From Halapricum desulfuricans (GTDB taxonomy: Archaea; Halobacteriota; Halobacteria; Halobacteriales; Haloarculaceae): 64,000 nucleotides of DNA. This document shows positions 20,943 to 57,258 of the stretch, piece after piece; position 1 is the first letter of the stretch, and each line of letters opens with the position of its first letter. Location of the stretch: NCBI RefSeq assembly GCF_017094465.1, contig NZ_CP064791.1, forward strand, positions 124,001 to 188,000. Reading direction: 5' to 3'. The notes below the pieces were generated by a model. The model saw only the letters and a program-made list of their open reading frames with translations, did no database searches and was not told the DNA's origin. Position numbers and translations under genes: made by a program.

Positions 20943-21407
20943 ATGCCTGGGAGAGTCGGATCAAAGAAGCAGACACGCACCACGACAGATCGGATGCAGG
21001 AAGAACGAACGCTGGTCGTAGGTCGCGATCGTCCTATTCGGATCAGCAGTGGACACCGCATTCAACACCACGATGGGAAGTGTTCTCGGCCCCATGGCCA
21101 CAACTACGAGATTGTCGTCGAGGTCACCGGTACTCTCAGTGAAGAAGGGTGGATTGTGGACAAAGGAGATATTACCTCGGTAATATCCAACTGGGATCAC
21201 CGATTCCTTCTGGAGAAGGGAGATCCTCTTATCGGGGCGTTCGAAGAGAGTGGTGACAGTGACGCAGTTGTCGTGTTAGAACACCCGCCAACTGCCGAGG
21301 TGATGAGCATCGTTCTCGAAGAACGGATGCTCGAAGCGTTCCCAGAGAACGTCTCAGATGTGTCCGTCGAAGTGAGTGAAACGGGCGAACTCTGTGCGAC
21401 ATACTGA
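20943..21407 (+). CDS. queD: 6-carboxy-5,6,7,8-tetrahydropterin synthase
   Basis: Converts 7,8-dihydroneopterin triphosphate to 6-carboxytetrahydropterin, the second step to preQ0. It is 154 residues. Zinc ligands H38 (SSGHR), H51 and H53 (PHGHNY) and the catalytic Cys C47 (GKCSRPHGH) are present, as are the DHRFLL and PPTAEVMS motifs, so it is QueD-like rather than a decayed PTPS. The N-terminal 20 residues are longer than usual, but the leaderless promoter supports this start. The stop is followed with no gap by queE (TGATG overlap). First gene of the four-gene preQ0 operon. Confidence 0.9.
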   Translation: MPGRVGSKKQTRTTTDRMQEERTLVVGRDRPIRISSGHRIQHHDGKCSRPHGHNYEIVVEVTGTLSEEGWIVDKGDITSVISNWDHRFLLEKGDPLIGAFEESGDSDAVVVLEHPPTAEVMSIVLEERMLEAFPENVSDVSVEVSETGELCATY

Positions 21408-22183
21408 TGCCAGTCAACGCTGATACCGACGCGCTCGACGACGAATCCTCTCCAGACAGCGACAATGCGCTCCCTATCAACGAGCTCTTCTACTCGTTAC
21501 AGGGAGAGGGAAAGCTTGCGGGCGTGCCGACAGTCTTCGTCCGGACGAGTGGCTGCAACCTTCGGTGCTGGTTCTGCGACTCCTACCACACCTCCTGGGA
21601 ACCCACCCACGCGTGGATGGATATCGACGACATCATCAGTGACATCGAGGACCATGACGCCAATCACGTCGTACTCACTGGCGGTGAGCCGATGATCCAC
21701 GACGAATGCGTGGAACTATTGGACCGCCTCGGAGAACGAGGCTATCACACAACGGTCGAGACGAACGGCACCATCTATCGCGACGCGCATATCGACCTGG
21801 CCAGCATCAGCCCGAAACTTCAGAGCAGCACCCCAACTGCCGAATGCGATCCGAAAGGCGACGGTGACTGGGCTGAGCGACACGAAGAACGGCGGATCGA
21901 CATTGACGCGATCGCCGAAATGGTTGATGCCTATTCGAGCCAGCTCAAGTTCGTTGTCACTGATCCCGAAGACATGGCCGAGATTGAAGACATGATCGCC
22001 AGGATTCGGGAGGCGACTGAGAAGCAAATCCAGGACGACGACGTCTTACTGATGCCTGAAGGAATGACCCGCGACGAGTTGGACGACACTCGAGAGACGG
22101 TCGCCGAACTCGCGATGGAGTACGGCTACCGCTACACCCCACGACTTCACGTGGACCTCTGGAACGACGCACCTGGTACCTGA
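21407..22183 (+). CDS. queE: 7-carboxy-7-deazaguanine synthase (radical SAM)
   Basis: Contracts the ring of 6-carboxytetrahydropterin to 7-carboxy-7-deazaguanine. It is 258 residues. The QueE N-terminus NELFYSLQGEG is followed by the iron-sulfur motif C50-x3-C54-x2-C57 (SGCNLRCWFCDS), the SAM-binding TGGEPM, and ETNGT and SPKL segments. It overlaps queD by one base and is followed by folE after a 2-base gap. The acidic N-terminal 20 residues are a typical haloarchaeal extension. Confidence 0.93.
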   Translation: MPVNADTDALDDESSPDSDNALPINELFYSLQGEGKLAGVPTVFVRTSGCNLRCWFCDSYHTSWEPTHAWMDIDDIISDIEDHDANHVVLTGGEPMIHDECVELLDRLGERGYHTTVETNGTIYRDAHIDLASISPKLQSSTPTAECDPKGDGDWAERHEERRIDIDAIAEMVDAYSSQLKFVVTDPEDMAEIEDMIARIREATEKQIQDDDVLLMPEGMTRDELDDTRETVAELAMEYGYRYTPRLHVDLWNDAPGT

Positions 22184-22185
22184 AC

Positions 22186-22827
22186 ATGAGCGACGATACG
22201 CAACTCGACGACGTAACGACGGAGGAACCGTTTCCAGTGAACACGGACACCGACGCTGCCATCGACCACGAAAAAGCCCAGCAGGGCGTCAAGCTGCTGC
22301 TCGAGGCCATCGGTGAAGATCCTGAAGCCGATGGACTCACCGATACGTGGCAGCGCCGTGTGCCCGACATGCTCGAGACACTGAGCGAGGGGTCACGGCA
22401 ACGCGAGAAGCCGACCATGCGGGCCTTCGAAGCGACAAACGACGATCTGGTCGTGAAAACTGGAATCCCCCTCTATAGTCTTTGCGAGCACCATATGCTC
22501 CCGTACAGGGGGACTGCGCATATCGCCTACCGCCCGGCTGGAGAGGTCGTCGGCCTCTCGAAATTGATCCGCTACGTTCGGTGGCAGTCCCGACGGCTCA
22601 CGATGCAAGAGGAGCTGACCCAGGACATCGCTCACGGTCTCGCTGACGAGCTCGGAGCCGAGTCCGTGATGGTCGAAGTTTCGGCGACACACATGTGTGA
22701 GGCGATGCGCGGTATTGAGACGGAAACGACCACGACCACGCGAGCCACGGTCGGCTCGCCGACGAACGACGAGCGAGAGCGATTCCGCGACGCAATCGCG
22801 CGGACCGACAACGGTGAGACGCTATGA
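22186..22827 (+). CDS. folE: GTP cyclohydrolase I (type IA, FolE)
   Basis: Opens GTP to dihydroneopterin triphosphate, the entry to preQ0. It is 213 residues with zinc ligands C100 and H103 (SLCEHHMLPY) and C171 (THMCEAMRG), the GLSKLIRYV and QEELTQDIA motifs, and the characteristic T-rich C-terminus TTTTRATVG. Haloarchaea and other archaea usually use the unrelated MptA/FolE2 enzymes, so a bacterial-type FolE points to horizontal acquisition with the operon. It overlaps queC by 4 bases (ATGA). Confidence 0.93.
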   Translation: MSDDTQLDDVTTEEPFPVNTDTDAAIDHEKAQQGVKLLLEAIGEDPEADGLTDTWQRRVPDMLETLSEGSRQREKPTMRAFEATNDDLVVKTGIPLYSLCEHHMLPYRGTAHIAYRPAGEVVGLSKLIRYVRWQSRRLTMQEELTQDIAHGLADELGAESVMVEVSATHMCEAMRGIETETTTTTRATVGSPTNDERERFRDAIARTDNGETL

Positions 22828-23519
22828 GTGACCAAGATAGAGCGGTAATTCTGGTATCGGGCGGCATGGACAGTGCGACGGCCGTCTACGAAGCGATCGA
22901 CCGCGGTTACGAGCCGTACTTCCTGCACACGTCCTACGGGCAGAATACGGAGACCAAGGAACTCGAATGTGCACGCGCACTCGCCAAAGAAGTCGATGCG
23001 GCGGACTTTCTCCACGTCGAGACACAGCATCTCGCGACGATCGGCGATTCCAGTCTCACTGACGACGAGATGGACGTCGAAGAAGCCGACATGGACAGCG
23101 AAGAGATCCCCCGTTCGTACGTCCCATTCCGGAACTCGAACTTGCTCTCGATGGCCGTCTCTTACGCCGAAGCGCAGGATTGTTCGGCGATATTCATTGG
23201 CGCGCATAGCGAGGATTTCTCTGGGTATCCTGATTGTCGCCCAGAGTTCTTTGAGGCGTTCCAGCAGGTCATTGATGTCGGGACGAAACCGGACACCGAA
23301 ATCGAACTCATTGCTCCGTTCGTCGAGTGGTCAAAGACCGATATCGCGGAGCGCGGACTCGAACTTGGGGTACCATATGAGCACACGTGGAGTTGCTACC
23401 GGGACGAGGCGCCAGCGTGCGGAACTTGTGACTCCTGTGCGTTCAGACTGCAAGCGTTCCAGAATCTGGGGGAACGTGACCCGATTGAATACGCAGAGCG
23501 CTCATCAAATGTGGAATAG
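22824..23519 (+). CDS. queC: 7-cyano-7-deazaguanine (preQ0) synthase
   Basis: ATP-dependent conversion of 7-carboxy-7-deazaguanine to preQ0, the base that transglycosylases insert. It is 231 residues. The PP-loop SGGMDS lies at about residues 12-17, GAHSEDFSGYPDCRPEF is the substrate loop, and the zinc motif CGTCDSCAFR (with the upstream Cys of WSCYR) is complete. Last gene of the preQ0 operon. Haloarchaea need preQ0 for tRNA archaeosine, but the placement beside two DpdA-like genes suggests this set also feeds DNA modification. Confidence 0.95.
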   Translation: MSDQDRAVILVSGGMDSATAVYEAIDRGYEPYFLHTSYGQNTETKELECARALAKEVDAADFLHVETQHLATIGDSSLTDDEMDVEEADMDSEEIPRSYVPFRNSNLLSMAVSYAEAQDCSAIFIGAHSEDFSGYPDCRPEFFEAFQQVIDVGTKPDTEIELIAPFVEWSKTDIAERGLELGVPYEHTWSCYRDEAPACGTCDSCAFRLQAFQNLGERDPIEYAERSSNVE

Positions 23520-24439: not shown

Positions 24440-24895
24440 ATGTCCACGCTGCTGGTTCAGTCATGCTCTAAATCCAAAAAATCGACTACTGAACCGGTCC
24501 AGGCTATCGATTTGTACTCTGGATACTTCTACAAAATAATCAAGAAGTCGAGACGTACTGGAGAGTTTGCGGAGGACATTGACATTGCAATCCTGTCAGC
24601 AAAGCATGGGCTCATCAGCCCAGACGAGCTGATTATGGAGTACGACCAGCGAATGTCGAAAGAGCGTGCAGAGGAACTAGCGGACGAGGTAACTGAAGAA
24701 CTGCGCGAGTTGGTTATCGACGGCGGATATGAGCGAGTCGTGATTAATGCGGGGCAGACGTATCGCCACGCGTTGGACCCCGAGGAGATTCCAGCAGACG
24801 TTTCGTATATCTCTGGAGATGGGATCGGGACGAAGGGGCACGCTCTCAAGAAGTTTATTAATGGGAACGACTCCATCTTGCAGGAGGCCCCGTGA
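24440..24895 (+). CDS. DUF6884 protein, candidate 7-deazaguanine DNA modification factor
   Basis: 151 residues. It has the DUF6884 signatures LLVQSCSKSKK at the N-terminus, DLYSGYFYKI, AILSAKHGLISPDE, EYDQRM, and VINAGQTYRHAL. The fold is related to YaaA (DUF328), and in bacterial Dpd clusters the DUF328 protein DpdC takes preQ0 in DNA to the amide form; a similar job here is inference. The stop overlaps the next gene by 4 bases (ATGA), so it is made with the DpdA-like transglycosylase. Confidence 0.7.
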   Translation: MSTLLVQSCSKSKKSTTEPVQAIDLYSGYFYKIIKKSRRTGEFAEDIDIAILSAKHGLISPDELIMEYDQRMSKERAEELADEVTEELRELVIDGGYERVVINAGQTYRHALDPEEIPADVSYISGDGIGTKGHALKKFINGNDSILQEAP

Positions 24896-26133
24896 TGTCA
24901 CAAGTAACGAGACGATTTGATTTCGAGGTTGACGCCGTAGCTGGTGATGCACGTACGGGGACACTCCGAATCGGAAGTCAAGAGTTAGCAACGCCGAATC
25001 TCTTCCCGGTACTCAATTTCTACGGTGGCGGAACAGAACGAAGCGTGTTTGGTGGTGGTATCCACCGAACTATCAAGGAATTCATGATTGGTGCCGACAG
25101 AATCGGTGGCGGAGACTATTCTGAGTATTTCGACTGCACGATGACGTCAGTCGCGTCGCTAACGGACTACAACATCACCCACGAACGCTATCAGAGCTAT
25201 CTCGATACACCGATCAAAGAACGCGAACTGTTCGAACCTTACAACGGTACGTTGTTCGTCGATTCTGGAGGGTTCAAATTCCTCGATGGGGGTGACATCG
25301 ACGGGAGTGACTTCGAGGTCGATATCGATCAGGAAAAGATCTACGAGATTCAGAAAAAGATGGGTGCAGACATCATCCTGAACCTGGACCACCCGATTGC
25401 ACCCGACGATTCACACGAGCAGCGGATGGAGAAAGCAGAGAAAACAGCACTCAACATCGCTGAGTTCCTCGACTTGTCTAGCGATTTTGACGGTGCTCGG
25501 TATCTCACCCTTCATGGATACAACTACTCGATGATGGACGCATTCCTCGAGAAAATCACGAGTATCGTCGATACGCGAGAGATTCACGAGGCTTTCGACG
25601 GCGTTGCACTTGGCAGCTTAGTCCCGAAGAAAGACAATCGAGAGCTCCTCATCCAGGCGGTAACGGATTGTCAAGAGGTGCTTCAGGACTGGGGGTTCGA
25701 CGATATGCCTCTCCACGTGCTGGGGATCTCTAGCCGGGCAGTACCCCTCTTGGCTGCTCTCGGTGTGGATAGCTTCGACGCCTCGAGTTACCTCCACAAT
25801 GCGATCAACGGGAAGTACTACAAATCGATGATGGAGAGCGTACCAATCTCCGAGGTCTCTTTCGAGAACTGTGATTGTCCTGTCTGTTCGTCAGAGCTCC
25901 ATAGACAACGAATGCGAGGCGACGCAGAGTATCAGAAGGATATCTACGGGGCAGTCGCTGTACACAATCTCATCATTCAGAAACAGGAACTTGCGACCAT
26001 TCGCGACCGTATTCGAGCAGAGGGAACCGCCCCTCTCAGAGAATACATCGAATCCACAGTGGCCAGAGATAAACAGACGCGGCAAGTCGCGCACAAAGTC
26101 GTCAATCAATCGCTCGGAGGGTACTTCCAATGA
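24892..26133 (+). CDS. dpdA: DpdA-like tRNA-guanine transglycosylase homologue acting on DNA (1)
   Basis: Predicted to exchange guanine for preQ0 in DNA. It is 413 residues in the TGT barrel fold. DSGGF at 124-128 and D166 in LNLDHP are where TGT has its general-acid and nucleophile Asp; GSLVPKKDN and DSFDASSYLHNA line the substrate pocket; C327, C329, C332 and H358 form the TGT zinc site. It lacks the PUA and archaeosine domains of tRNA enzymes. A second homologue lies at 29039. It overlaps DUF6884 upstream and the GHKL ATPase downstream by 4 bases each, so all three are one translational unit. That it acts on DNA is inferred from this context and from its divergence from tRNA-specific enzymes. 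Confidence 0.82.
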   Translation: MMSQVTRRFDFEVDAVAGDARTGTLRIGSQELATPNLFPVLNFYGGGTERSVFGGGIHRTIKEFMIGADRIGGGDYSEYFDCTMTSVASLTDYNITHERYQSYLDTPIKERELFEPYNGTLFVDSGGFKFLDGGDIDGSDFEVDIDQEKIYEIQKKMGADIILNLDHPIAPDDSHEQRMEKAEKTALNIAEFLDLSSDFDGARYLTLHGYNYSMMDAFLEKITSIVDTREIHEAFDGVALGSLVPKKDNRELLIQAVTDCQEVLQDWGFDDMPLHVLGISSRAVPLLAALGVDSFDASSYLHNAINGKYYKSMMESVPISEVSFENCDCPVCSSELHRQRMRGDAEYQKDIYGAVAVHNLIIQKQELATIRDRIRAEGTAPLREYIESTVARDKQTRQVAHKVVNQSLGGYFQ

Positions 26134-27692
26134 AGAAAGCACCAAAAGTCAACGAGGTAAACGAGTTCTTAGAGATTGCGAGCGACTTCGAGGATCCACT
26201 GGAAGTCATCCGTGAGTCACTCTCGAACTCGTACGACGCTGAAGCATCGGAAATCGAGATTACGATTCGAAGCCGACCGCAGGGGTCGGACATCATTATC
26301 GAAGACGACGGGAACGGAATGAACGAGCGCGACCTAGAATCGTTCTTTGACCTCGGTAATTCCCAGAAGACGGACTCTATCGGGTACAAGGGCCACGGCA
26401 CCAAGATCTTCTACAAGAGTGATCGCATTGTGGTCAATACGGCCAAGAACGGGGTTAACCGCCGAGCGGTGATGGATAACCCTTGGGAGAAACTTAATCG
26501 GCAGGAACTCCCAGAATACGAATTGACTAAAGCAGATGTCAGGGATGAGAATCAGGGCACGCGTATCAAAATCACAAACTTCCGTTCTGGTGAGGGATTC
26601 GATCCCGAATCACTCACATATAACAAGATCCATCACTACCTGAAGTGGAAAACAATCGCTGGATCGACGGCCCATTTCTTCGAAGATAATCCCAGAGAGA
26701 TGGACATCCGAGTAGACCTGGGTGAGGAGATCGATGATACGAGGGACGAACTCGTCACCACCAGTCGATTGGAATTCCCTGACGAGCAGCTAGAACCCAG
26801 TGACGACGAGTTCCCAGCAGAGCGGATGTGCAAACACTACGAGCCACGTGAGATTGAAGTCGAATACGATGGTGGAATGACGACAGTACAAATAGTCGGG
26901 ATGGTTGGAGGGAAGGCTGCCAGAAACGAACTACCCACACACGGTCGTCATTCGGTGCAGTTCGGTGTCTGGTTCGCCAAGGATCACATCAAGGTGGAGC
27001 AGATCAACGAAACCATCTCTCACGACAACGAGTTCATTCACTTCTTCTTCATTGTCAACTGTCAGGATCTCGAATTATCTGCCAACCGGGAAACGATCCG
27101 GAATAAATCGAATCCAGTCTTCAGAGCAGTTCGTGACGAAGTAGAATTCTATATGTCCAAGGTAACTCAGGACCCTTGGTTCAAGAACTATCTCGAAATC
27201 CGGCGAGAGGGGAAACTCAAGCGTCGGGCCCGGACGCAGGAATCGTCCCTGCAAGATCGGCGAAAATCGGTTACTGAGCGCGAGCGATTTGAGCCATCTA
27301 ACCGAGCTGAAGTCTTACTCGCGGTCGAACGAGCGTCTCAGCAGCAAGCCGGCTTCTCCTTGCAGGTCGAAGACTACCAGCCGGATGCTGACATCCAGGC
27401 TATCGTCCGGCATCAGGGTAAACTCCGGAATGCTGCGATTCACCACCAGCTTACAGAGCACTTCAAGAACGAGAGCCCGCTGGAACACATTGATCTTATC
27501 ATCTATTGGGAGCAGGGAGATCCGACGAAGCTGAACGAAGTGGAGCGAACAGGATACATTGGCGGGGAAATCGAGATTGACCACGACAGTGGGTCCATCA
27601 CGTACCAGCGCGACGGTGATTCCTCGTATATTGAGCTGTTGAGCTTGACTGACGTATTCAAACCCAAGACGAAGGCCATCGCAGACGATTGA
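26130..27692 (+). CDS. GHKL-type ATPase coupled to the transglycosylase
   Basis: 520 residues. The N-terminal third is a GHKL (Hsp90/MutL/topoisomerase VI) ATP-binding domain: VIRESLSNSYDAEA (N box with Glu, Asn, Asp), IEDDGNGMN (G1), and IGYKGHGTKIFY (G2). The middle, with FVVNCQDLELSANRET-like segments, resembles the second domain of MutL and MORC proteins; the C-terminus is unassigned. The ATG overlaps the stop of the transglycosylase. An ATP-driven clamp or loading factor for modification is plausible, possibly in the place of the ATPase partner DpdB of bacterial systems; this is inference. Confidence 0.78.
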   Translation: MKKAPKVNEVNEFLEIASDFEDPLEVIRESLSNSYDAEASEIEITIRSRPQGSDIIIEDDGNGMNERDLESFFDLGNSQKTDSIGYKGHGTKIFYKSDRIVVNTAKNGVNRRAVMDNPWEKLNRQELPEYELTKADVRDENQGTRIKITNFRSGEGFDPESLTYNKIHHYLKWKTIAGSTAHFFEDNPREMDIRVDLGEEIDDTRDELVTTSRLEFPDEQLEPSDDEFPAERMCKHYEPREIEVEYDGGMTTVQIVGMVGGKAARNELPTHGRHSVQFGVWFAKDHIKVEQINETISHDNEFIHFFFIVNCQDLELSANRETIRNKSNPVFRAVRDEVEFYMSKVTQDPWFKNYLEIRREGKLKRRARTQESSLQDRRKSVTERERFEPSNRAEVLLAVERASQQQAGFSLQVEDYQPDADIQAIVRHQGKLRNAAIHHQLTEHFKNESPLEHIDLIIYWEQGDPTKLNEVERTGYIGGEIEIDHDSGSITYQRDGDSSYIELLSLTDVFKPKTKAIADD

Positions 27693-29038: not shown

Positions 29039-31051
29039 CTATTCGGCGGTCGCAGCCAAGAAGTCGGTGAGCTCTTCGATGTTCTCGTTCCGGAAGAATT
29101 CAGTCAGTTGGAGAGCCTTCGGATCTCTTGGTAACACTTGACCGCGCCCATATTCTTCGAGCGCATCTTCGATTACCTGCCGATACGTTTTGCTCGTGAC
29201 GTAGCCGACGATCTCGTCGTAGTTATCGCCGTGCTTTTCCAGATACCGAAGAACTCGATCAGTGACTAGCTCGATTTGCCGTTCATCTTCGCCTGCCAGA
29301 ACATATTCGTATTCGAGGACTGGTTTCTCCTCTTCGAACTCTTCAGGGACCGGGCCGTACATTCCGGAGACCGTCACCTTGTGAATTCTGGACTTGTGCT
29401 TCCCGAGCTTGTCAGCTAATACTGAGTGGGTTCTCGACTCAGAGTACGGCTTTTGTTGGCTACAGGGGATCAAGAGACATACATCGCGATCAGCGGGCGG
29501 GGTGTACGATCGAGTGCTCACATCGAAGCTATGTGGACCATATTCGAGAGAGATGCTTCGAGTTTCGTCCGACTCGTCAACGCCACCATCCCAATCAGAG
29601 AGTTTCTTCTGATCGCTCCGGAGCTCTGTCCCAGGTAAGAGGTCGTAAGCACCGAGTTGTTCGATATCGTTCCGAAGACTCTTGTCACGTATCTGGGCTT
29701 GTTCGAGCCCTGTTTTGATTTGTTCGTGCTCCCGGGCGAAGTTGACGACGTACTCCAATAGGTTTCCTTCGTTGATATGCCTCCGAACGCGTTGGAGTTC
29801 GTCGTTGTACACTTCGAAGTTGTGCCGGGCAAGCAGCGCGTAGTAGTCGCTCTTGATTGGTTCGTCGTTATCTTTGCGCCTCTCTCGCTCGTCGTAGCTG
29901 AAATCTCTGTTCAGCACCGACTGCATCTCCTCATATGACGTATCGTATTCGCTATCTCCCTGACAGAGCAGACAGTGTTCCAGATTGCAGGGATAATCGG
30001 TTCCTTCGACTTCTAAATCGTCGAGGTGGATGTTCTCCCACGTTTCCGGATGGAGATACTTCCGAAACTTCGCCGATTGCATGTGGCTCGAGCAGTCGAA
30101 GGAATCGACGCCAAGCAGCGCCAGTAGTGATACCTGCTTTCCGCCGATTCCGAAGACGTGGAGTCCCATCTCGTCTGCACGATCTTCCGGAATCGCGTCT
30201 TTCGCACCCTGGACAATATCGACGAGTACATCGACGCTACTTCGGAGGGGAACTAGGGATCCGATAGCGAATCCGTCTGGCTGTGTCTCGACGTCGGCCT
30301 CAGCTAGACGCTCGATGAAAGTACCAACGTACCAGTTTACCGTCTCGTAATCGTGTCCGTGGAGAGCGACGTATACTCCTGGTTTGTCATCGCTATCAAT
30401 CCAGTCATTGAGTGTGTGTAAAGGTATGTCGTTTTCTTCAAAATGAGTGATCAAATCGACCGGATTATCCAAAAGACGAAGACATTCAACCGCGCTATCG
30501 ATGCTACGTTCCATCCGCTCGAACTTTTCTTCTTCGCGGAGCTTCGGAGGAATCGGATAGTCTAGCGTGGCAATGATATCGGCACCAAAATCGATCTGTA
30601 GGCCGAGAATACTCTTTGGATTTGTATACAATCCCCATTCGTTTTTAGTTCCACCTTCCTCAGGAGCTTCTCCGAAGGTGTTTGAATTCATCAATTTGAA
30701 ACCGCCAGAATCGATGAACACGGGCGAATTAAGATCCGGGAAATCCTCATCATCCGCTTCTGCAAATCGCTCGTGAAATGTCTTATCACGCCAGAAGTTC
30801 TTCAAGTTTCCTGGAGAGACGCCGTAGTCGGAGAAACTCATCGCCTGGAACATGACGCCTTGCAGATGATCGCTTGCGATGAGACGATCTCGCATACGCC
30901 TCCAGACTCCTCCAGATTTGAGCGTGGTTCCGCCAATTAGATTGATCACAGGGAAGAGTGCAGGTGTCTCAACTGGCCCGTGTGGTACGGACATCTCTCC
31001 AATGCGTCCGTATCCATCGTCACCATGTTGCGTTACCCGGAAGGAAGCCAT
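29039..31051 (-). CDS. DpdA-like transglycosylase fused to an archaeosine-synthase-like domain (2)
   Basis: 670 residues. The N-terminal TGT domain has DSGGF at 114-118, D164 in TLDYP, GSLVPLRSS, DSFDCSSHMQ and a zinc site (three Cys around residues 360-370 in CNLEHCLLC, then the His of ARHN). After a linker, residues 523-650 resemble the DUF5591 catalytic domain of ArcS: IPCSQQKPYSESRTHSV (ArcS C-S-x-x-K-P-Y-S), then VSGMYGPVPEEFEE and YDEIVGYVTSKTY. ArcS turns preQ0 in tRNA into archaeosine. The fusion suggests an enzyme that inserts and then amidinates a 7-deazaguanine, perhaps giving deoxyarchaeosine in DNA. The start ATG 31051 is the first in frame. A second, different homologue sits at 24892. 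Confidence 0.85.
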   Translation of the reverse strand: MASFRVTQHGDDGYGRIGEMSVPHGPVETPALFPVINLIGGTTLKSGGVWRRMRDRLIASDHLQGVMFQAMSFSDYGVSPGNLKNFWRDKTFHERFAEADDEDFPDLNSPVFIDSGGFKLMNSNTFGEAPEEGGTKNEWGLYTNPKSILGLQIDFGADIIATLDYPIPPKLREEEKFERMERSIDSAVECLRLLDNPVDLITHFEENDIPLHTLNDWIDSDDKPGVYVALHGHDYETVNWYVGTFIERLAEADVETQPDGFAIGSLVPLRSSVDVLVDIVQGAKDAIPEDRADEMGLHVFGIGGKQVSLLALLGVDSFDCSSHMQSAKFRKYLHPETWENIHLDDLEVEGTDYPCNLEHCLLCQGDSEYDTSYEEMQSVLNRDFSYDERERRKDNDEPIKSDYYALLARHNFEVYNDELQRVRRHINEGNLLEYVVNFAREHEQIKTGLEQAQIRDKSLRNDIEQLGAYDLLPGTELRSDQKKLSDWDGGVDESDETRSISLEYGPHSFDVSTRSYTPPADRDVCLLIPCSQQKPYSESRTHSVLADKLGKHKSRIHKVTVSGMYGPVPEEFEEEKPVLEYEYVLAGEDERQIELVTDRVLRYLEKHGDNYDEIVGYVTSKTYRQVIEDALEEYGRGQVLPRDPKALQLTEFFRNENIEELTDFLAATAE

Positions 31052-41572: not shown

Positions 41573-41645
41573 GGTAAGCGCTGCCGTGTTTAGTAGACAG
41601 CCGTACTGCAATCCGTGTAATTGCAGACCCCCCAAGACCCTGTTT

Positions 41646-44600
41646 ATGCACGACCCCCAACACACCCTTAATGAAGCGGTTGATCGCGCGTCAGAGATCA
41701 CCTGGTGGAACCGCCGGATGACAAAGCTGAACGAGATACCCAATCTCGATAATGCGTACGATTTTGTCGAAACTGATCTAGTCGAACGGAAAGGACCCTA
41801 CCTTGAACTCGTGAAAGCGCCCCAGGCAGCGTCTGAACCAGCAAGCGAGTTTCTGGATTCTCTTGAGTATCACGACGATATCACCAACGCTGTCGTGTCG
41901 GAGTTGTTCGACGGTGACGACTCTGGAAGCCTGTATCAGCACCAAGCCGAGACAATTGAGGCGATTGAACGCACCAACAACGACACGATTCTATCCGTTC
42001 CGACAGCGACGGGGAAAACGGAATCATTCTTCTTCCCGATTCTCAACCACTGTCTCTCGACTGACGAAGAGGGGCTCAAGTCTCTGGTAATCTACCCGAT
42101 GAAGACGCTGAGCGTCGATCAGCTCAATCGCTTCCTCACGTACCTCGACCACATCAATCGCGATCGTGATCCGAAAGACAGGATTACGATCGGGATCTGG
42201 GACGGCGACACTCCACACGACGTCGGATCGAAAGACTACGAGATCGAGGTTGACTCGTTCATTCGTGGCCTGGAGTGTCCCCGAACGAAGGAGAAACTTA
42301 GAGTTCGCTCTTCGACGACTGTGGGTACAGAGAAGACCGAGTATTCGTGGATCCGGGTTACTCGCGAGAGTATTCGCCAGGGTGTGGATATTCTCCTTAC
42401 AAACCCTGAAGCGCTCGATTACATGCTCGTAAACGATTCGGCAGATACCCGTAGTATCCTCGGATCGAGGCCGGGCGAACATCCACTCAAGCACATCGTC
42501 TACGACGAAGCTCACGTCTGGAGTGGCATCTCGGGTGCAGCAATCTCACTGCTGACGAAACGCCTCAAACACTTCTATGGGAATCGGGATCCGCAGGTCA
42601 CGATGGTTTCCGCAACCGTAGACAACCCGACTGAGTTGGCGTCCTCGCTCACTCATACCTCGGAAGACAATATCAACGCGGTAGACTTTACGAGTCGAGA
42701 GGTGCCTGTCAAAGGTACCCCAGACTTTACCAGATTTGATCCGTGTACACTTGACGAACTCGTCGAGACGATTGCGCGTACGACGCTTACAGCAGATTCG
42801 TCTGAGGAACTCCTCTCTCAAAACCCCAATCTGGAAGGCGCGCTGGGGACTCTCCGCGAGGTCAGTCTCGTTCAGGACACATCCGCCGGGCTATCCATTT
42901 CTGAGATCCATGCAGACTGGGTCTGTAGACCAGTTCAGCGTATCGTCGATCAACTAGTCACAGAAGGCGCGTACGACACTGAACGTGCCGTTCTCGATGA
43001 CCAAGATGGTCTCGAACAAGTTGTCGAAGCTGTGGTGAAATCAGGCGGTTCGTCCAGTCAGTGGTACGAATTTGTGATCGACTCTGTGCCGGAAGTAGCA
43101 ACGTTCGCTGCCTGGTTCGATACCGACACGACCGGGAGCGTCGGCTTCAAGAAACAGCCGCAGCTGATCGAATCCGTTGCACGAGAAGGCGCTGAAAACC
43201 CGCGAGAAATCCTCGAAACCGTCATGCACTTCGGCCGGATGGCTGGTATCGTCACAGAAAAATATCACGCGTTCCTCAAACCGCCGCTCAAAGTCCACTG
43301 GTGCCAGGACTGCCACCTCGTCTCTCGCTCCAATGCCTGCCGGGAGTGCGGAGAGGAAATCCCTGAACTCCAGTTTTGCCGGCGGTGTCACTATCCGTTC
43401 GTTGAACGGGGAGAATCCACTGAAGACGACGATGAAACGGACTTCGTTCCAATCGGGACGTCTGAGGTCGTCTCTCACTGCCCTGGCTGTGACAAGTACG
43501 TAAACCTGACTGATATCGAGGTGCCGACTTCGACGCTCCTCTCGTTCATGCTGACGGAGATCTGCCGGACTGCACCGTCGAAAAAGACACTCGTCTTCTC
43601 CGACTCGCACGCCTCGGCGGAGAGTGTCGGCGGCGAGATTATCGGCCAAGAATACGGGTTGATGGCGGAATCCCTCTACGTGAAGGAACTGCTGGATCAC
43701 GACGGAGCCCACGATAACTACGAGATATTCAAAACGGTCTCTGAACAACTCCGAGAGGCGTACTATAACCCGCTGTTCCAGAACGAAATCGACGAGGACA
43801 GCGAGACGTACAACATCCTCCGTCAGCTTCGGAACGACATCTCACAAAACGCGTACCTCTCCAATTGTCGGCACCTTCTCGAAAGCGCCCTCGTCCTCCC
43901 GGAACCGCTTTATCAAGCAACGACGGACGATCTCGATCGTCGAGTTATCGCGACGGAGCTGTACAAACTCTTCGCGCTGGAACCGAGAGTCGGCTTCAGC
44001 AAGGAAACTGTCGATATCGAGGGGCTCACGCGTGAGAAGATCGTCAGCCGGATCGGGAACCGTACGACGCTTTCGGAGTCTGCTATCGCCGACCATGTCG
44101 ATGAATTCCTCCAGATTCTCCTGGATGACCGAGTAATAACGGAGCAATCTTGGGAGCGAATTCAGCAGGCAGTTTCTGAAGGCGATGTAGGTACAGAGCG
44201 TCAGGATAAGGTGTTCGACTACATCGAAGCTCAGCGAGCCCGCGTGAACGACTCTGGGGCGTTTACCAGATCATTCGATAGTGGCGTCTTTACTCGCATA
44301 CCCAAGCAAGACGAGTCGTCACTCCGTCTCATTCCTCGTGTATCATACTGTACAGAGTGTTTCTCGACTCACCCGGTACCTGAGGGTCTGGAAGCCGATA
44401 CGTGTCGGTCCTGTGGTGCAGCGGTGGAGACCTACGATCGGTACGAAATCAAGCCGGACGGCAGCTACGAAGGACAGGGATACGCGGATGTTGACTCCGA
44501 CTGGCAGTGGCCAGTGGACCACTGGGCGTACGAACTCAACCGACCCCTCGAAGAAAGCGAGGATGGCACACCCGAGTTTGTCACTGTAGGGATCCACAAA

Positions 44601-46421
44601 GGGAACATCCCGCCGACGCTTCGTGGTGCGATTGAAGAGAGTTTCCGAAAAGACGATCCGGACGTCAATATCGTGAGTGCCACGCCAACGATGGAACTCG
44701 GTGTTGACATCGGAACTCTCGATACTGTCACGCAGGTCGGGATTCCTCCCAATCTGACCAACTACGTCCAGCGGAGCGGGCGAACGGGCCGAACACGCGG
44801 GAGTTCCTCACTCGTGATGACCGTCGTCCGTGGCGATCATCCCGTTGACAACCACTACTATGCGAACCTCGAGGGGTTCTTCCGGAACTTCGAGCCTGTT
44901 CGGGTCCCCGATCCCTTCGAGTTCGACGAGCTCCTGGCAGGCCACGTTATGACGACGGTGATCGCATATCTGGCCCGTAATCCCCACGAGTCGAATATCT
45001 TCAGTCAAATCTACGAGCTGGAGACGAAAAACACGGACCTGCAAAAGTACGTTAGCGAGGTTACCGAGCGTCTCAACATCCTTCGGGAATTCATTCTGGA
45101 GGAAAAACGATCGGAACTCACGAACTACATTCGCGAGGTATTCGGTGAAGAAGGTGTTCGTGTCTTCGAGCGGATATTCGTCGAAGACGGTAACTTGAGT
45201 CTCCAGCACCGTGCTGATTTCACCTTCCAGAAACTGACAGCGATGTCGGGTTCGACCGAGACGAACAAACGTCTCTCTGAGCGCCACAACCGGCTCGATT
45301 CGTGGCTCTCTCTGCTGGGCTATCTCGCAAATTACCGTGATTTCGGTCAGCAATTCCCGGTGAAGTTCTCCGGGAGACAGGATAGTATTGAATTCGAATC
45401 GAGCGGCCGCCTCTACGATATGTTCCCTGGCGAAGAGAACGCCCTAGGCTCTGTTCTCAGTCTTCACGGGACCCAGTACGTGGTCTCTGATGTTCATGGG
45501 ACGACCACGCCGATCTCGGAAGTGGCAGTCTGCATCAACGAGGATTGTGACCGGCCGTTCCAGGCGTATCAGACCGATACTGAACACTGTCCTCACTGCG
45601 AGGAGCCCCTTGCAGAGACGAACATCCACGGTGTTGGATCAGTCGAATGTCGAACGACCCGCGGCGGTGAGGAAGGATATCACACTCGCGGGATCCTTTC
45701 GACGCACATTGCGCCAAGCGAAGGTGGTGACGAGGTCACCGTTGATGAACGTACGCTCTTCGGAGTCCAATGTCCCGTAGAGTACGGAGAATACGCCGTT
45801 ACTGACTTCGTGTACGCGTTCGAGCGGGGACACTCCCGGAGCCCTGACCGGACTACGCTTCGCTCTGAGGCGCTCATCGAACGCGAGAAAGGCGGGTCGA
45901 GCGAAGGGCTCTCCTGGGAGGAGCGACTCGAAGACGTCTCGAAGGAGACCTACGCTCCGGTCGGCCAGCGATACCATACACAGGGCCTGAAGCTCAACCT
46001 GCCGCGGTCTGAGCTTGAGGAGCGTCTCTCTGAGGCTCTCCCAGACGAGACAGATTGGCCCCAGGCTATCGCGAGCTTCGAGCAGGCGCTCACGAAGGCC
46101 GTCGCGATCGTGGGCGAATTCGATCAGCAGGACTTCCGAATCAAAACAGTCCTGAAGCCCGAAACAGTGGAAGTCTATCTCGTCGATGGCCGGCAGGGTG
46201 GCAACGGCATTACCTGGCGCATTCGCCAGGAGCTGGAAGACGATCTACTTTCAGCCATTGCCGAGGTTGCTGCGTGTGAGCGGTGTGCTGACTTCTGCGA
46301 AGAATGTCTGCTTCTCTCGAGAACGCCGCCAGCGTATCTCGAGAACGACCTTCTGAACAAGTACACGCTTCGAGCATTCCTCGGTGATTCGACCATGGCT
46401 CTCACTGACGGAGGAGATTGA
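41646..46421 (+). CDS. Giant DEAD/DEAH-box helicase with MZB/DUF1998-type C-terminus
   Basis: 1591 residues. Walker A PTATGKT at 119-125, motif II DEAH in YDEAHVWSG, motif III SAT in MVSATVD, helicase C-terminal domain with SATPTMELGVDIGTLD and RSGRTGRT. Several zinc-ribbon Cys sets lie between (WCQDCHLV, CRECGEE, CRRCHYP, HCPGCDKY) and near the C-terminus (ACERCADFCEECLL, after VDGRQGGNG, as in the MZB domain of DUF1998 helicases). DISARM DrmA and the Dpd helicases are of this type; which one is nearest cannot be told. It heads the run of genes to 53801; 72 bases separate it from the next. Confidence 0.88.
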   Translation: MHDPQHTLNEAVDRASEITWWNRRMTKLNEIPNLDNAYDFVETDLVERKGPYLELVKAPQAASEPASEFLDSLEYHDDITNAVVSELFDGDDSGSLYQHQAETIEAIERTNNDTILSVPTATGKTESFFFPILNHCLSTDEEGLKSLVIYPMKTLSVDQLNRFLTYLDHINRDRDPKDRITIGIWDGDTPHDVGSKDYEIEVDSFIRGLECPRTKEKLRVRSSTTVGTEKTEYSWIRVTRESIRQGVDILLTNPEALDYMLVNDSADTRSILGSRPGEHPLKHIVYDEAHVWSGISGAAISLLTKRLKHFYGNRDPQVTMVSATVDNPTELASSLTHTSEDNINAVDFTSREVPVKGTPDFTRFDPCTLDELVETIARTTLTADSSEELLSQNPNLEGALGTLREVSLVQDTSAGLSISEIHADWVCRPVQRIVDQLVTEGAYDTERAVLDDQDGLEQVVEAVVKSGGSSSQWYEFVIDSVPEVATFAAWFDTDTTGSVGFKKQPQLIESVAREGAENPREILETVMHFGRMAGIVTEKYHAFLKPPLKVHWCQDCHLVSRSNACRECGEEIPELQFCRRCHYPFVERGESTEDDDETDFVPIGTSEVVSHCPGCDKYVNLTDIEVPTSTLLSFMLTEICRTAPSKKTLVFSDSHASAESVGGEIIGQEYGLMAESLYVKELLDHDGAHDNYEIFKTVSEQLREAYYNPLFQNEIDEDSETYNILRQLRNDISQNAYLSNCRHLLESALVLPEPLYQATTDDLDRRVIATELYKLFALEPRVGFSKETVDIEGLTREKIVSRIGNRTTLSESAIADHVDEFLQILLDDRVITEQSWERIQQAVSEGDVGTERQDKVFDYIEAQRARVNDSGAFTRSFDSGVFTRIPKQDESSLRLIPRVSYCTECFSTHPVPEGLEADTCRSCGAAVETYDRYEIKPDGSYEGQGYADVDSDWQWPVDHWAYELNRPLEESEDGTPEFVTVGIHKGNIPPTLRGAIEESFRKDDPDVNIVSATPTMELGVDIGTLDTVTQVGIPPNLTNYVQRSGRTGRTRGSSSLVMTVVRGDHPVDNHYYANLEGFFRNFEPVRVPDPFEFDELLAGHVMTTVIAYLARNPHESNIFSQIYELETKNTDLQKYVSEVTERLNILREFILEEKRSELTNYIREVFGEEGVRVFERIFVEDGNLSLQHRADFTFQKLTAMSGSTETNKRLSERHNRLDSWLSLLGYLANYRDFGQQFPVKFSGRQDSIEFESSGRLYDMFPGEENALGSVLSLHGTQYVVSDVHGTTTPISEVAVCINEDCDRPFQAYQTDTEHCPHCEEPLAETNIHGVGSVECRTTRGGEEGYHTRGILSTHIAPSEGGDEVTVDERTLFGVQCPVEYGEYAVTDFVYAFERGHSRSPDRTTLRSEALIEREKGGSSEGLSWEERLEDVSKETYAPVGQRYHTQGLKLNLPRSELEERLSEALPDETDWPQAIASFEQALTKAVAIVGEFDQQDFRIKTVLKPETVEVYLVDGRQGGNGITWRIRQELEDDLLSAIAEVAACERCADFCEECLLLSRTPPAYLENDLLNKYTLRAFLGDSTMALTDGGD

Positions 46422-46493: not shown

Positions 46494-47402
46494 ATGAGTC
46501 TGGACTATCTTAGAACGCGAATGGACCAAAACGAGGTCGCGTTCATCTACGACGAGATCGGCGACCGTGGATTCGGGATGCTACGGTGTCTTCCGGTCAT
46601 TCACTATCTCGGTGTTCACCACTTCACCTTCCCGAAGCGGTGGCGGCAACTCTCGTCACCCGCACAGTACGACTATCTTGATTACGAGTACGAACTCTTG
46701 GGTGAAATCGACCTTCGAGACGAGATGCTCTGTGCGATTACGAATCAGAACTACGAGACGCACACCGAGTTCACCATTCGCCCGCTGTTACACCGTTACG
46801 AATCGAGCGAGGCGACGTTCGTGGTCATTGCAGATCACCATGACTTCGATCCACAGGAGGGTCAGCGGATGCTCCGGATGCAGCCGTTCGTCTACGACAT
46901 GGGATCGTATAGACAGGTATACAGTTATTTCGAGGATCACTACGAGGAGGTTGGTGTGGGATGCCCACTCATAGACACCGCGAACTTATTTATGCAAGAT
47001 AACGCCAATCTTTATCGAATGGTGACAGGACAACAGCTCACTCGGACACGGGAGTTGTTCGAGGTTCTCCCTGACGCCCCGTACCTGCCGCTGTACGAAG
47101 CGTTCGTACAGATCTTTAGCCGGCGGCGTGAGCCGGGTGCCTCACCGCTTGATTCGTTTGCGGAGATCGAAGGGCTTGGTCGCTGGTTACGGCGTCGGCT
47201 GGAATGGGATCGTCAGAAAGCGCTGGAGGTAGCCCGGTCGCTCAACCGCCGGGTTGACGCTGATGAGAGTACGTTCGATAGCGCACAGCGCAGCCGTCAT
47301 CCGATGATGGAAGAAGCAACGTCCGTAGCCAGGACCATCGACTCGACTGAAAGTGACGTGCACGAACGCTACATGCGGTGGCTAAGCAAGGTGGTACAAT
47401 GA
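46494..47402 (+). CDS. Hypothetical protein of the defence operon
   Basis: 302 residues, no cysteine cluster or membrane segment. Segments such as GMLRCLPVIHYLGVHHFTFPKRW, FVVIADHHDFDPQEG and a C-terminal helical region (WLRRRLEWDRQKALEVARSLNRR) suggest an alpha/beta protein of unknown fold. It overlaps the next gene by 4 bases (ATGA). By size and place it could correspond to DpdI of the bacterial system, but I could not confirm this from motifs. Confidence 0.6.
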   Translation: MSLDYLRTRMDQNEVAFIYDEIGDRGFGMLRCLPVIHYLGVHHFTFPKRWRQLSSPAQYDYLDYEYELLGEIDLRDEMLCAITNQNYETHTEFTIRPLLHRYESSEATFVVIADHHDFDPQEGQRMLRMQPFVYDMGSYRQVYSYFEDHYEEVGVGCPLIDTANLFMQDNANLYRMVTGQQLTRTRELFEVLPDAPYLPLYEAFVQIFSRRREPGASPLDSFAEIEGLGRWLRRRLEWDRQKALEVARSLNRRVDADESTFDSAQRSRHPMMEEATSVARTIDSTESDVHERYMRWLSKVVQ

Positions 47403-48247
47403 GTTCTTCAGAAGCTTACATCCTCAACGAAATTCAAAATCCGGCCGCGTTGCGGGTCGTTTTCGACTCGATCGCGGACGGGAATGAGACGAAAGAAGAG
47501 ATTCAGGAAGACACGTGTCTCCCCGATGGATCGACCGAAGAAATTCTCGGTGGCCTCGTTCTTCTGCGACTAATCAGTCGTTCAGACTTCGGATACGAAG
47601 CGACTTCCTTGAGTTGGGACACTGGAGATCGCCACCGTGACTTCCAGCTGTCTGCACTGGAGAACCTCGCGAAGGAGGCAACCGCAGAGGACTGGGGGAA
47701 GCAAGCCGCGGTTCTCCTCAACTACGAATATCTAATTTCGCGCAACATCCAGGAGTTCGAGAACAACGAGAGAGCGCTCTACGAAGATATTGACTATTGG
47801 ATCAAGAAAGAAACGGACTATCGACCGAAAGGTGACGGTGAGATCTACAAGCACAATGACGTCAAATTCGCGAACTGGACCCGTCTCGTGGAGTATCTCG
47901 GCCTCGTTCACAAGGTTTCTGGACGCCAGCACACGGTGTATCCAGACCCAGAACTGATCTTGGCGTCTATTCGACGTGCTACTGAAAACTATCCTGTACA
48001 AGGCGAGAAGGCAGATATCGAAGTTCGGGACTATCTCGAATGGCTGGATTCGAACCTGCTACGGATTGGCTACTCAACAGGAGGTACCGTTCCTGAGATC
48101 CTAACGCAGTGTCTGTTCTCGTTAGTTCGATCACGCCAGATCCGACTCGTCGAATACGGTGACGCAGGTTCCGTCACGTTCACACACCTGCCGAATCGTG
48201 CGCACTCCGGCATCGACCAAGAAGCGAACTCAATCAAACTACTATGA
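47399..48247 (+). CDS. DpdG-like winged-helix protein
   Basis: 282 residues from MSSSEAYILNEIQNP. The N-terminal part (AALRVVFDSIADGNETKEEIQEDTCLPDGSTEEILGGLVLLRLI) is a winged-helix-like unit, repeated in weaker form in the middle and at the C-terminus. It matches DpdG in size and position, directly before the large ATPase (DpdH-like). A DNA- or partner-binding adaptor is likely. ATGA overlap at both ends. The name is by context. Confidence 0.6.
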   Translation: MSSSEAYILNEIQNPAALRVVFDSIADGNETKEEIQEDTCLPDGSTEEILGGLVLLRLISRSDFGYEATSLSWDTGDRHRDFQLSALENLAKEATAEDWGKQAAVLLNYEYLISRNIQEFENNERALYEDIDYWIKKETDYRPKGDGEIYKHNDVKFANWTRLVEYLGLVHKVSGRQHTVYPDPELILASIRRATENYPVQGEKADIEVRDYLEWLDSNLLRIGYSTGGTVPEILTQCLFSLVRSRQIRLVEYGDAGSVTFTHLPNRAHSGIDQEANSIKLL

Positions 48248-51129: not shown

Positions 51130-51808
51130 ACGTGATTTCTCTCCGATCCAGTCCGATCTCGAGCAGGTCTACGAACAGTACCAACAACAGCATCTCTACG
51201 AAGAACTCGACGATATTGCGGATCAGATGGAAGAGACGCTGCTCCAGTGTGTCATCGCCAACAATCTCTTCGAGCGCAGTCTATCGGTGAATCAGAAGGC
51301 CAAAGATACCGTAGAGGCAGCCCAGGCAGCTGTTCAGAATGACGATGTTCATCGGCTGGAGGACCTTCTTCCTGAGGTCGAAACTCGCGTTGACGAGGAA
51401 GAAACGCGCATCAACAACGAAATTCAGGAATCGCGGATCGAGATGCACGAGACGGTCAGAGCTATGCGGGGTCTGAACGAAGAGATCCAGGTGTATAACC
51501 AGGGGCGATTGAGAGGACTAGAAACGCTCCTTGACGACTGGAGTTGGAAGCAACACGTCTACACCGAGGAGAACAACTCGTATGAGGAGCGGTATAACGA
51601 GGCTGAAGAATTCGCAACCGATATGCGATCCGTATTCGACGACGCGAAGCAAGCAATCGGTGGCGAGTTCACCGGTCAAGAAATCGAATCGCTAGTAGAT
51701 AATCTACTAAACGAGGGCGGCGTCTCGTTTACTGAGCTTTCGCCTGAACAAATACAGGCTCTCGCCGACTCCGAGATCAGCTCCTACCTCCATCTGTCAC
51801 TTGGATAA
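51119..51808 (+). CDS. Coiled-coil protein of the defence operon
   Basis: 229 residues from MSSKRDFSPIQSDLEQVY. Almost wholly helical and acidic, with heptad-like stretches (QVYEQYQQQHLYEELDDIADQMEE, ETRINNEIQESRIEMHETVRAM). No enzymatic motif. It starts inside the end of the DpdH-like gene (11-base overlap), so it is made with that ATPase and could be its structural partner. Confidence 0.65.
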   Translation: MSSKRDFSPIQSDLEQVYEQYQQQHLYEELDDIADQMEETLLQCVIANNLFERSLSVNQKAKDTVEAAQAAVQNDDVHRLEDLLPEVETRVDEEETRINNEIQESRIEMHETVRAMRGLNEEIQVYNQGRLRGLETLLDDWSWKQHVYTEENNSYEERYNEAEEFATDMRSVFDDAKQAIGGEFTGQEIESLVDNLLNEGGVSFTELSPEQIQALADSEISSYLHLSLG

Positions 51809-55857: not shown

Positions 55858-55915
55858 ACGCACAAAGCAACTGTTCTTGAAACTCGTGGACGAGCATTTC
55901 AGTGGGGAAGACGGT

Positions 55916-56814: not shown

Positions 56815-57258
56815 TCACTGATAATCGAGTTCAACCTCTATGTACTGATCGACGTCGTCGTACTCGTTCTCGACGATTTGGCAGAGTTCCCTGTTCACGA
56901 ACAAGCCACCGCGTGTGATGTTTGCCGAGCCGATATACACCGAATCTTCGCTCACGACCGCTTTGGCGTGTAAGTCAGGAACAGACCGGACGTCTACGCT
57001 CTCTGAGAGATGAGATTTGATGTAGTTATTGTGCTCTTGGTCCGATCGGATCAGTACCAGAACCTCTGTGTCTCCCTCCAAGGCTTCTATCGCCTTCGAG
57101 AGGTACATCTTCCGTTCGTCGAAGCGGTTGTTCACCGGGAGTACCACTTCGATATCACTGATCCAGGGTGAGACGAGTGCCACCCGATTACTGTGAAAGA
57201 GCGTGTACCCGATGTAGTAGTCGAGTGCTTCAGAAGGTAAGGAAAATGTTTGTGTCAT
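56815..57258 (-). CDS. DpdK-like phospholipase-D-domain protein
   Basis: 147 residues with a single H-x-K motif: LHAKAVVSEDSVYIGSANIT (H97, K99, N113), the half-site of PLD-type nucleases, which pair as dimers. In bacterial Dpd systems the last gene (dpdK) is a small PLD-domain protein next to a large helicase (dpdJ); DISARM has DrmC in the same role. It is translated from within the 3' end of the helicase gene (29-base overlap). Confidence 0.78.
   Translation of the reverse strand: MTQTFSLPSEALDYYIGYTLFHSNRVALVSPWISDIEVVLPVNNRFDERKMYLSKAIEALEGDTEVLVLIRSDQEHNNYIKSHLSESVDVRSVPDLHAKAVVSEDSVYIGSANITRGGLFVNRELCQIVENEYDDVDQYIEVELDYQ

What the first reader, a model, noticed from the sequence alone, without database searches (positions are those of the whole stretch)
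29039..31051. DpdA-like transglycosylase fused to an ArcS-like domain
The N-terminal TGT domain is followed by a segment with the ArcS (DUF5591) signature C-S-x-x-K-P-Y-S and the GPVPEEFEE block. ArcS makes archaeosine from preQ0 in tRNA. One protein that inserts and then amidinates the base would give deoxyarchaeosine in DNA, which in phages is thought to be made by a different route (Gat-QueC). A fused archaeal route would be a new solution.
Basis: partly seen in the sequence, partly recalled or inferred. Interest (0 to 1): 0.86.

Follow-up and report, generated by a model that had tools for sequence, protein, structure and literature searches.

The report
DNA base-swapping enzyme fused to archaeosine-synthase domain
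A salt-loving archaeon carries, inside a DNA-defence island, a single protein that joins a base-swapping enzyme to the core of the enzyme that finishes the tRNA base archaeosine; the same fusion is conserved in dozens of haloarchaea and a few cyanobacteria and probably puts a new or very rare modified guanine into their DNA.

Summary
ORF 29039-31051(-), 670 aa, is a TGT domain (PF01702, 1.3e-29) fused to the ArcS core DUF5591 (PF17884, 2.8e-20), with the ArcS signature P-C-x3-K-P-Y-x2-S-x2-H intact. It is not a one-off: homologues occur in 38 of 391 Halobacteria genomes and three cyanobacteria; catalytic residues of both domains are invariant and both are under purifying selection.

The TGT domain groups with a second island TGT, not with arcTGT; ArcS's tRNA-binding domains (TGT_C2, PUA) are missing; the host has its own arcTGT, ArcS and RaSEA elsewhere. 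The fusion nearly always accompanies DUF6884 (DpdC-type)-TGT2-GHKL ATPase, often preQ0 genes and a DpdJ-like helicase operon: a Dpd-like restriction-modification island.

Corrections: this is a cellular island, not a phage. ArcS alone transfers lysine to preQ0; RaSEA makes archaeosine. An unfused DpdA2 + ArcS pair was already reported in Vibrio phage nt-1. So the direct product is more likely a dPreQ0-lysine adduct, with dG+ only if host RaSEA acts on DNA. RaSEA is absent from fusion-bearing cyanobacteria, where dG+ by this route is unlikely. The product is untested.

The parts
29039..31051 (-). DpdA-like TGT fused to ArcS core (670 aa), the finding
   Evidence: PF01702 + PF17884; homologues in 38/391 Halobacteria and cyanobacteria
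29723..31015 (-). TGT domain, residues 13-443; D114 and D319 (TGT catalytic Asp positions), C355 C360 C363 H410 (Zn ligands) conserved
   Evidence: Foldseek best hit 1iq8 arcTGT 7e-19
29144..29512 (-). ArcS core domain DUF5591, residues 514-636
   Evidence: (2.8e-20)
29426..29467 (-). ArcS signature P-C-x3-K-P-Y-x2-S-x2-H, residues 529-542
29345..29359 (-). YGPVP block, residues 565-569 (equivalent of GVVP in canonical ArcS)
24440..24895 (+). DUF6884 protein (DpdC-type, YaaA-like), overlaps TGT2 start
   Evidence: PF21818 7.6e-17; AlphaFold2 model pLDDT 92, PDB hits YaaA and AF0587; with TGT2 in 31/37 loci
24892..26133 (+). TGT2, second DpdA-like transglycosylase (413 aa)
   Evidence: PF01702 2.4e-24; sister of the fusion TGT, 98/93; co-occurs with fusion in 37 of 38 genomes
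26130..27692 (+). GHKL ATPase (HATPase_c_3), frame overlaps the end of TGT2
   Evidence: in 31/37 neighbourhoods
20943..21407 (+). QueD (PTPS)
   Evidence: PF01242 4.5e-20
21407..22183 (+). QueE (radical SAM, 7-carboxy-7-deazaguanine synthase family)
22186..22827 (+). FolE, GTP cyclohydrolase I
   Evidence: NF006826 9e-52, over cut-off
22824..23519 (+). QueC (plain, no Gat domain); a second QueC exists at C1:242950 of the host genome
   Evidence: PF06508 1.5e-74
41586..46421 (+). Large DEAD helicase with MrfA Zn domain, Druantia/DpdJ-like
   Evidence: in 26 of the 38 fusion genomes and only 3 of 353 others
46494..51808 (+). Four-gene operon behind the helicase (46494-47402, 47378-48247, 48244-51129 AAA/STAND-like ATPase, 51044-51808)
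54058..56623 (+). GmrSD-like: N domain 54058-55857 and C domain 55781-56623 in two overlapping frames
   Evidence: one 829-aa ORF in relatives
57230..61366 (-). DpdJ-like helicase
   Evidence: PADLOC DpdJ 8e-55; NF041067 178 bits, cut-off 800

Best explanation
A bifunctional DNA-modifying enzyme. The N-terminal DpdA-like transglycosylase swaps guanine for preQ0 in DNA; the C-terminal ArcS core then attacks the nitrile of that base, most likely by transferring lysine, leaving dPreQ0-lysine in DNA. In haloarchaea the host RaSEA might cleave this to deoxyarchaeosine (dG+). The enzyme is one of two transglycosylases in a Dpd-like restriction-modification island: the other (TGT2) works with a DpdC-type DUF6884 protein and a GHKL ATPase, the que genes supply preQ0, and the helicase/ATPase genes are the restriction side. 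Shown here: domains, intact catalytic residues, conservation of the fusion, phylogenetic separation from tRNA enzymes, gene linkage. Inferred: DNA as substrate, order of steps, chemistry of the product, role in self-marking.
For: Both domains found with intact signatures and both constrained. Fusion TGT groups with TGT2 (98/93), away from arcTGT (100/96) and E. coli Tgt. ArcS domain is its own clade (96/97), not a copy of the host ArcS. tRNA-binding TGT_C2 and PUA, found in the host ArcS by the same kind of scan, are absent. Host keeps its own arcTGT, ArcS and RaSEA and a second QueC, so the island is an extra system. Co-occurrence: fusion with TGT2 37/38, p 3e-45; with the helicase 26/38 against 3/353, p 3e-28 (not corrected for phylogeny). 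DUF6884, TGT2 and ATPase within about 9 kb in 31/37 loci. A cyanobacterial copy sits beside a DpdJ-like helicase (L220). ArcS accepts preQ0 nucleoside 5'-phosphate, so tRNA is not needed for lysine transfer (PMC11298593). Phage nt-1 pairs DpdA2 with a separate ArcS-like protein and has dG+ in its DNA (PMC6884629; ArcS-like ORF confirmed).
Against: No base analysis of any such organism was found. The second half of the ArcS active region differs from canonical ArcS (YPA-x2-YD-x3-TG becomes PV-x2-YEYVL), so the nucleophile may not be lysine. The fusion fails NCBI's ArcS, arcTGT and DpdA cut-offs. The AlphaFold2 model of the whole protein is moderate (pLDDT 78, pTM 0.70) and does not fix the relation of the two active sites.
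Confidence: 0.6

Rival explanations
1. One reading: the product is deoxyarchaeosine (dG+), formed when the host's tRNA RaSEA completes the ArcS-domain reaction on DNA.
For: The four haloarchaeal carriers tested all have RaSEA (TIGR01210: G000, G033, G107, G259); ArcS and RaSEA form a complex in Thermococcus (PMC11298593); nt-1 DNA with an ArcS-like gene contains some dG+ (PMC6884629).
Against: No RaSEA gene was seen in the window; cyanobacteria with the fusion have no RaSEA; the fusion lacks the ArcS domains other than the core, so the RaSEA contact may be lost; nt-1 holds mostly dPreQ0.
Confidence: 0.25
2. The ArcS domain acts as a DpdC-type nitrile hydratase, giving dADG; it is an equivalent of DUF6884 rather than a lysine transferase.
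For: DUF6884 and DUF5591 share a fold (Foldseek: DUF6884 model hits AF0587 at 3.8e-4 and YaaA at 1.5e-4; hhalign 77%, E 2e-5). TGT2-only genomes have, upstream of the same module, a DpdA-like 310-aa gene plus a second DUF6884. Cyanobacterial and Paenibacillus DpdA have DUF6884 fused to TGT. nt-1 DNA contains dADG (PMC6884629).
Against: The full ArcS signature K-P-Y-x2-S-x2-H is kept, which the window's DUF6884 protein lacks; a second hydratase would be redundant with the DUF6884 already in the locus.
Confidence: 0.2
3. The fusion is a tRNA-modifying enzyme (second archaeosine system) that happens to lie in an island.
For: TGT domain's closest solved structure is arcTGT; ArcS core is otherwise a tRNA-pathway domain.
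Against: Not in the arcTGT or ArcS clades; no TGT_C2/PUA; host has the complete tRNA pathway; only 38/391 genomes have it, tied to a helicase.
Confidence: 0.08
4. TGT2 is the catalytic DNA transglycosylase and the fusion TGT is a partner subunit (as QTRT2 is to QTRT1); the ArcS part does the only chemistry of the fusion.
For: The two TGTs are sister groups and co-occur in 37 of 38 genomes.
Against: Both keep the catalytic Asp pair and Zn ligands, unlike a dead subunit; the L099 and L100 genomes have, besides the fusion, only one other TGT, a strong match to the standard tRNA type.
Confidence: 0.15

Closest known systems
ArcS, archaeosine synthase alpha (NF040592; PF17884 core)
   Same: Core domain with P-C-x3-K-P-Y-x2-S-x2-H; adjacent TGT-like domain
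   Different: Canonical ArcS has a truncated TGT-like N part plus TGT_C2 and PUA and acts on preQ0-tRNA; here a full catalytic TGT, no C2/PUA, separate clade, second conserved block altered
DpdA / Dpd system of bacteria
   Same: TGT paralogue in a defence-type island with preQ0 genes, a DUF6884 (DpdC) gene and DpdJ-like helicases
   Different: Fails NCBI DpdA model; no DpdB match found; two TGTs, one with DUF5591; GHKL ATPase in the module; the published dpd survey read here (PMC11888242) reports bacterial phyla
Vibrio phage nt-1 DpdA2 + ArcS-like
   Same: DNA transglycosylase with an ArcS-like partner; dPreQ0, dADG and dG+ detected in DNA (PMC6884629)
   Different: Separate genes, DpdA2 very distant from the fusion TGT, ArcS-like ORF388 has RPY instead of KPY
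Phage 9g Gat-QueC / DpdA route to dG+
   Same: Aim: 7-deazaguanine in DNA
   Different: Amidation by Gat-QueC; here QueC is plain and the nitrile step would be the ArcS domain
BREX-Related Capture systems with TGT (+GNAT) (PMC12839542)
   Same: TGT recruited to an archaeal/bacterial defence locus
   Different: Defined by HerA, PglZ, DUF6079, DUF4007; the paper reports no DpdB or DpdC homologues there, and the passages read describe no ArcS fusion

Membership tests
TGT superfamily (PF01702) | TGT domain above cut-off; catalytic Asp pair; Zn ligands | tested here: met
   103.8 bits vs 26.3; D114, D319, C355, C360, H410 invariant, C363 at least 90%
ArcS core (PF17884) | DUF5591 above cut-off with P-C-x3-K-P-Y-x2-S | tested here: met
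   73.1 bits vs 26; motif at 100% in 25 fusions
ArcS (tRNA archaeosine synthase) | NF040592 equivalog cut-off; TGT_C2 and PUA | tested here: not met
   125 vs 440 bits; no TGT_C2/PUA, host ArcS has both; separate clade
ArcS (tRNA archaeosine synthase) | Lysine transfer to preQ0 | not testable with these tools
   needs biochemistry
arcTGT (TgtA) | TIGR00432 cut-off; position in arcTGT clade | tested here: not met
   103.8 vs 350 bits; outside clade 100/96
DpdA (NCBI/Pfam definition) | NF041059 over 200 bits or PF23859 | tested here: not met
   14.2 bits; PF23859 not listed up to E 1
Dpd system | DpdC (DUF6884) | tested here: met
   PF21818 7.6e-17; DpdC = DUF6884 in PMC11888242
Dpd system | DpdB and DpdD-K by curated models | tested here: not met
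   DpdJ-like only, 178 vs 800 bits; no DpdB match among the genes scanned
Dpd system | 7-deazaguanine base in DNA; restriction of unmodified DNA | not testable with these tools
   LC-MS and transformation assays needed
RaSEA-dependent dG+ route | RaSEA available | tested here: inconclusive
   present in the haloarchaeal hosts tested, outside the island; absent from cyanobacterial carriers

The most novel reading that the evidence does not exclude
The final base is dPreQ0-lysine: an amino acid joined through an amidine to a 7-deazaguanine in cellular DNA, made in one polypeptide by base exchange followed by lysine transfer, and used as the self mark of a two-transglycosylase restriction-modification system shared by archaea and cyanobacteria.
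Probability: 0.33. Interest if true: 0.92.

Novelty: new variant of a known kind. Interest (0 to 1): 0.74.

Why it matters
It would be a one-protein insert-and-decorate DNA modifier, extend Dpd-like self-marking to archaea with a tRNA-pathway domain, predict a new or very rare DNA base in named, culturable organisms, and tie ArcS and DpdC (DUF5591, DUF6884, YaaA) into one family of enzymes that work on the preQ0 nitrile. It also turns the published puzzle of the ArcS homologue in phage nt-1 into a direct test: look for the lysine adduct, which would have been missed if it was not among the standards used.

Tried and rejected
Viral origin: no homologue in IMG/VR or phage records. Canonical tRNA enzyme in an odd place: rejected by trees and domain content. 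Fusion as assembly artefact or pseudogene: rejected by its presence in 38 genomes and by dN/dS. EEP nuclease 27827-28984 as a partner: no homologue in the 37 neighbourhoods, so left out. Adjacent RaSEA: none seen in the window (QueE is the radical SAM gene of the que cluster). Key subscription papers on DpdC and newer phage 7-deazaguanines are not held, so a prior mention of the fusion there cannot be excluded.

Full report
1. Is it there? Yes. The ORF at 29039-31051 on the minus strand is a single 670-aa frame. Pfam gives TGT over residues 13-443 (1.3e-29) and DUF5591, the ArcS core, over 514-636 (2.8e-20); NCBI's ArcS model matches the same part at 3.3e-36 but at 125 of the 440 bits required. 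In the PDB the two halves find P. horikoshii arcTGT and AF0587.

2. Is it more than one odd gene? In 391 Halobacteria genomes 38 carry a homologue, the listed full-length ones at 46-71% identity in one frame. The genome collection adds named carriers (Haloplanus, Salinibaculum, Natronorubrum, Natrinema, Halorubrum, Halorussus, Halobellus, Halosimplex and others) and, at 34-37% identity, two cyanobacteria (Planktothrix paucivesiculata PCC 9631 and an Oscillatoriales MAG); a third cyanobacterium, Coleofasciculus, has a full-length copy (L220). None was found in viral contigs or phage records; two lie on haloarchaeal plasmids. In an alignment of 19 including the cyanobacteria, the TGT residues D114, D319, C355, C360 and H410 and the ArcS residues P529, C530, S531, K534, P535, Y536, S539, S562, G563 and YGPVP are invariant. 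Nine ArcS-core positions are at 100% in four separate DUF5591 groups. dN/dS is low for both halves.

3. tRNA or DNA? The host has its own arcTGT (C1:1479016), ArcS (C1:2353965) and, next to ArcS, a TIGR01210 protein (C1:2351972), the family I take to be RaSEA from general knowledge. The host ArcS has TGT_C2 and PUA, which the fusion lacks. In a tree of TGT domains the fusion joins TGT2, the other TGT of the same island (98/93), and stays outside the arcTGT clade (100/96) and apart from E. coli Tgt. In a tree of DUF5591 domains the fusion is its own clade (96/97), apart from canonical ArcS (96/98) and stand-alone archaeal DUF5591 proteins (99/99). Branches between groups are long, so their order is not claimed.

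4. Surroundings. In the window: QueD, QueE, FolE and QueC (20943-23519); DUF6884 (24440-24895), TGT2 (24892-26133) and a GHKL ATPase (26130-27692) in overlapping frames; then the fusion on the other strand; a large helicase (41586-46421) with four further genes, a GmrSD-like gene and a DpdJ-like helicase (57230-61366). In 37 relatives, DUF6884, TGT2 and the ATPase lie within about 9 kb of the fusion in 31, QueC in 13, the helicase in 13. Genome-wide, TGT2 is in 37 of 38 fusion genomes and 5 of 353 others (Fisher 3e-45); the helicase in 26 of 38 and 3 of 353 (3e-28). These p-values ignore shared ancestry. A second QueC at C1:242950 shows that the island's que genes are an extra set. DpdC of bacterial Dpd islands is described as DUF6884 (PMC11888242) or DUF328 (PMC12839542) and hydrolyses dPreQ0 to dADG.

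5. ArcS core and DpdC-type proteins are kin. The AlphaFold2 model of the window's DUF6884 protein (pLDDT 92) has two significant PDB matches, YaaA (1.5e-4) and AF0587 (3.8e-4); AF0587 is a DUF5591 protein. Profile comparison aligns PCSxxK with SCSxxK and SGMYGPVP with SAxHGLIxP (77%, E 2e-5). The two domains also take the same place beside TGTs: DUF6884 is fused N-terminally to DpdA in Picosynechococcus, Paenibacillus and Coleofasciculus, lies C-terminal to a TGT remnant in another Coleofasciculus contig, and a YaaA-annotated gene lies beside DpdA in halovirus HRTV-29. In five haloarchaea with TGT2 but without the fusion, a DpdA-like 310-aa protein (26% to HRTV-29 DpdA, 2e-15) stands upstream of DUF6884-TGT2-ATPase, in four of the five together with a second DUF6884 gene. 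Firmicutes L113 and L120 carry a TGT and a stand-alone DUF5591 as neighbours. The general rule that I infer is one nitrile-processing domain per DNA transglycosylase.

6. What chemistry? ArcS of Thermococcus transfers lysine to preQ0, needs only the nucleoside, works well with a 5'-phosphate, and blocks the reverse exchange; RaSEA then makes G+ (PMC11298593). A DNA substrate is therefore chemically plausible, and lysine transfer would lock the base in place. But the fusion by itself should stop at the lysine adduct. The haloarchaeal carriers tested have a host RaSEA; the cyanobacterial carriers have no TIGR01210 match at all, so there dG+ by this route is unlikely. The part of the ArcS core after the motif differs from canonical ArcS, so another nucleophile, including water, is not excluded. 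My split for the product: lysine adduct about 0.35, dG+ 0.25, dADG 0.2, other or unmodified dPreQ0 the rest.

7. Known or new? Vibrio phage nt-1 was reported to have DpdA2, a separate ArcS homologue and dPreQ0, dADG and some dG+ in its DNA, the role of ArcS being left open (PMC6884629). I located that homologue as ORF388 (2.5e-15 to a DUF5591 profile), with RPY instead of KPY. Hence 'ArcS with a DNA transglycosylase' has a precedent; the covalent fusion, the host system with two TGTs plus DUF6884 plus GHKL ATPase, and its spread over haloarchaea and cyanobacteria were not found in the papers searched. Important subscription papers are not held. It is not a member of ArcS, arcTGT or DpdA as NCBI defines them, nor of the curated Dpd system; it looks as if it works like parts of all three. 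I rate it a new variant of a known kind.

8. Limits. No modified base has been measured. The full-length model is moderate (pLDDT 78, pTM 0.70); its TGT part matches arcTGT but the placing of the ArcS domain is not established. The restriction role of the helicase operon is inferred from linkage and from similarity, below curated cut-offs, to DpdJ and Druantia helicases.

Noticed in passing
L209-L213 (haloarchaea with TGT2 but no fusion), e.g. L209:6942-8332: A divergent DpdA-like gene, in four of the five with a second DUF6884 gene, stands directly upstream of DUF6884-TGT2-ATPase.
   Followed up: partly
L226:17416-18096 (Vibrio phage nt-1 ORF388): Annotated hypothetical; is the phage's ArcS-like DUF5591 protein, with Arg in place of the KPY lysine, next to QueD, FolE and DpdA2.
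   Followed up: partly
L120:8577-10474 and L113:887-2783: Firmicutes (Desulfovirgula and Peptococcaceae MAGs): TGT gene beside a stand-alone DUF5591 gene; in L120 a HerA translocase lies on the other side. Possible unfused relative or BRC-like system.
   Followed up: partly
Sulfolobus STSV2 15416-15838 and STSSV4 4867-5289: Spindle-shaped archaeal viruses encode a weak DUF5591-like hypothetical protein (E 5e-4 to 1e-2).
   Followed up: no
Archaea of the same phylum outside Halobacteria, e.g. L184-L193: A second, stand-alone DUF5591 protein (mostly 200-260 aa) with the KPY motif is common there and forms its own clade apart from ArcS; its function is not known to me.
   Followed up: partly
54058-56623: GmrSD-like gene read as two overlapping frames (N and C domains) where relatives have one 829-aa ORF: frameshift in the window or a real split.
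   Followed up: no
L099:11900-13638, L100:11900-13647: Behind the cyanobacterial fusion: a GmrSD_N protein and a HEPN_MAE_28990 protein in L099; genes of the same size and place in L100.
   Followed up: no
9357-11144 and 33957-35252: Eco57I-type DNA methylase and a PDDEXK (PDC-S26-like) protein in the same low-GC region; resolvase at 16229-17941.
   Followed up: no
L122:8991-15782 (Natronorubrum plasmid): Another haloarchaeal two-TGT locus: NF041059 DpdA (280 bits), DUF6884, a 344-aa TGT, BrxC/D-like ATPase and a queuosine precursor transporter.
   Followed up: partly
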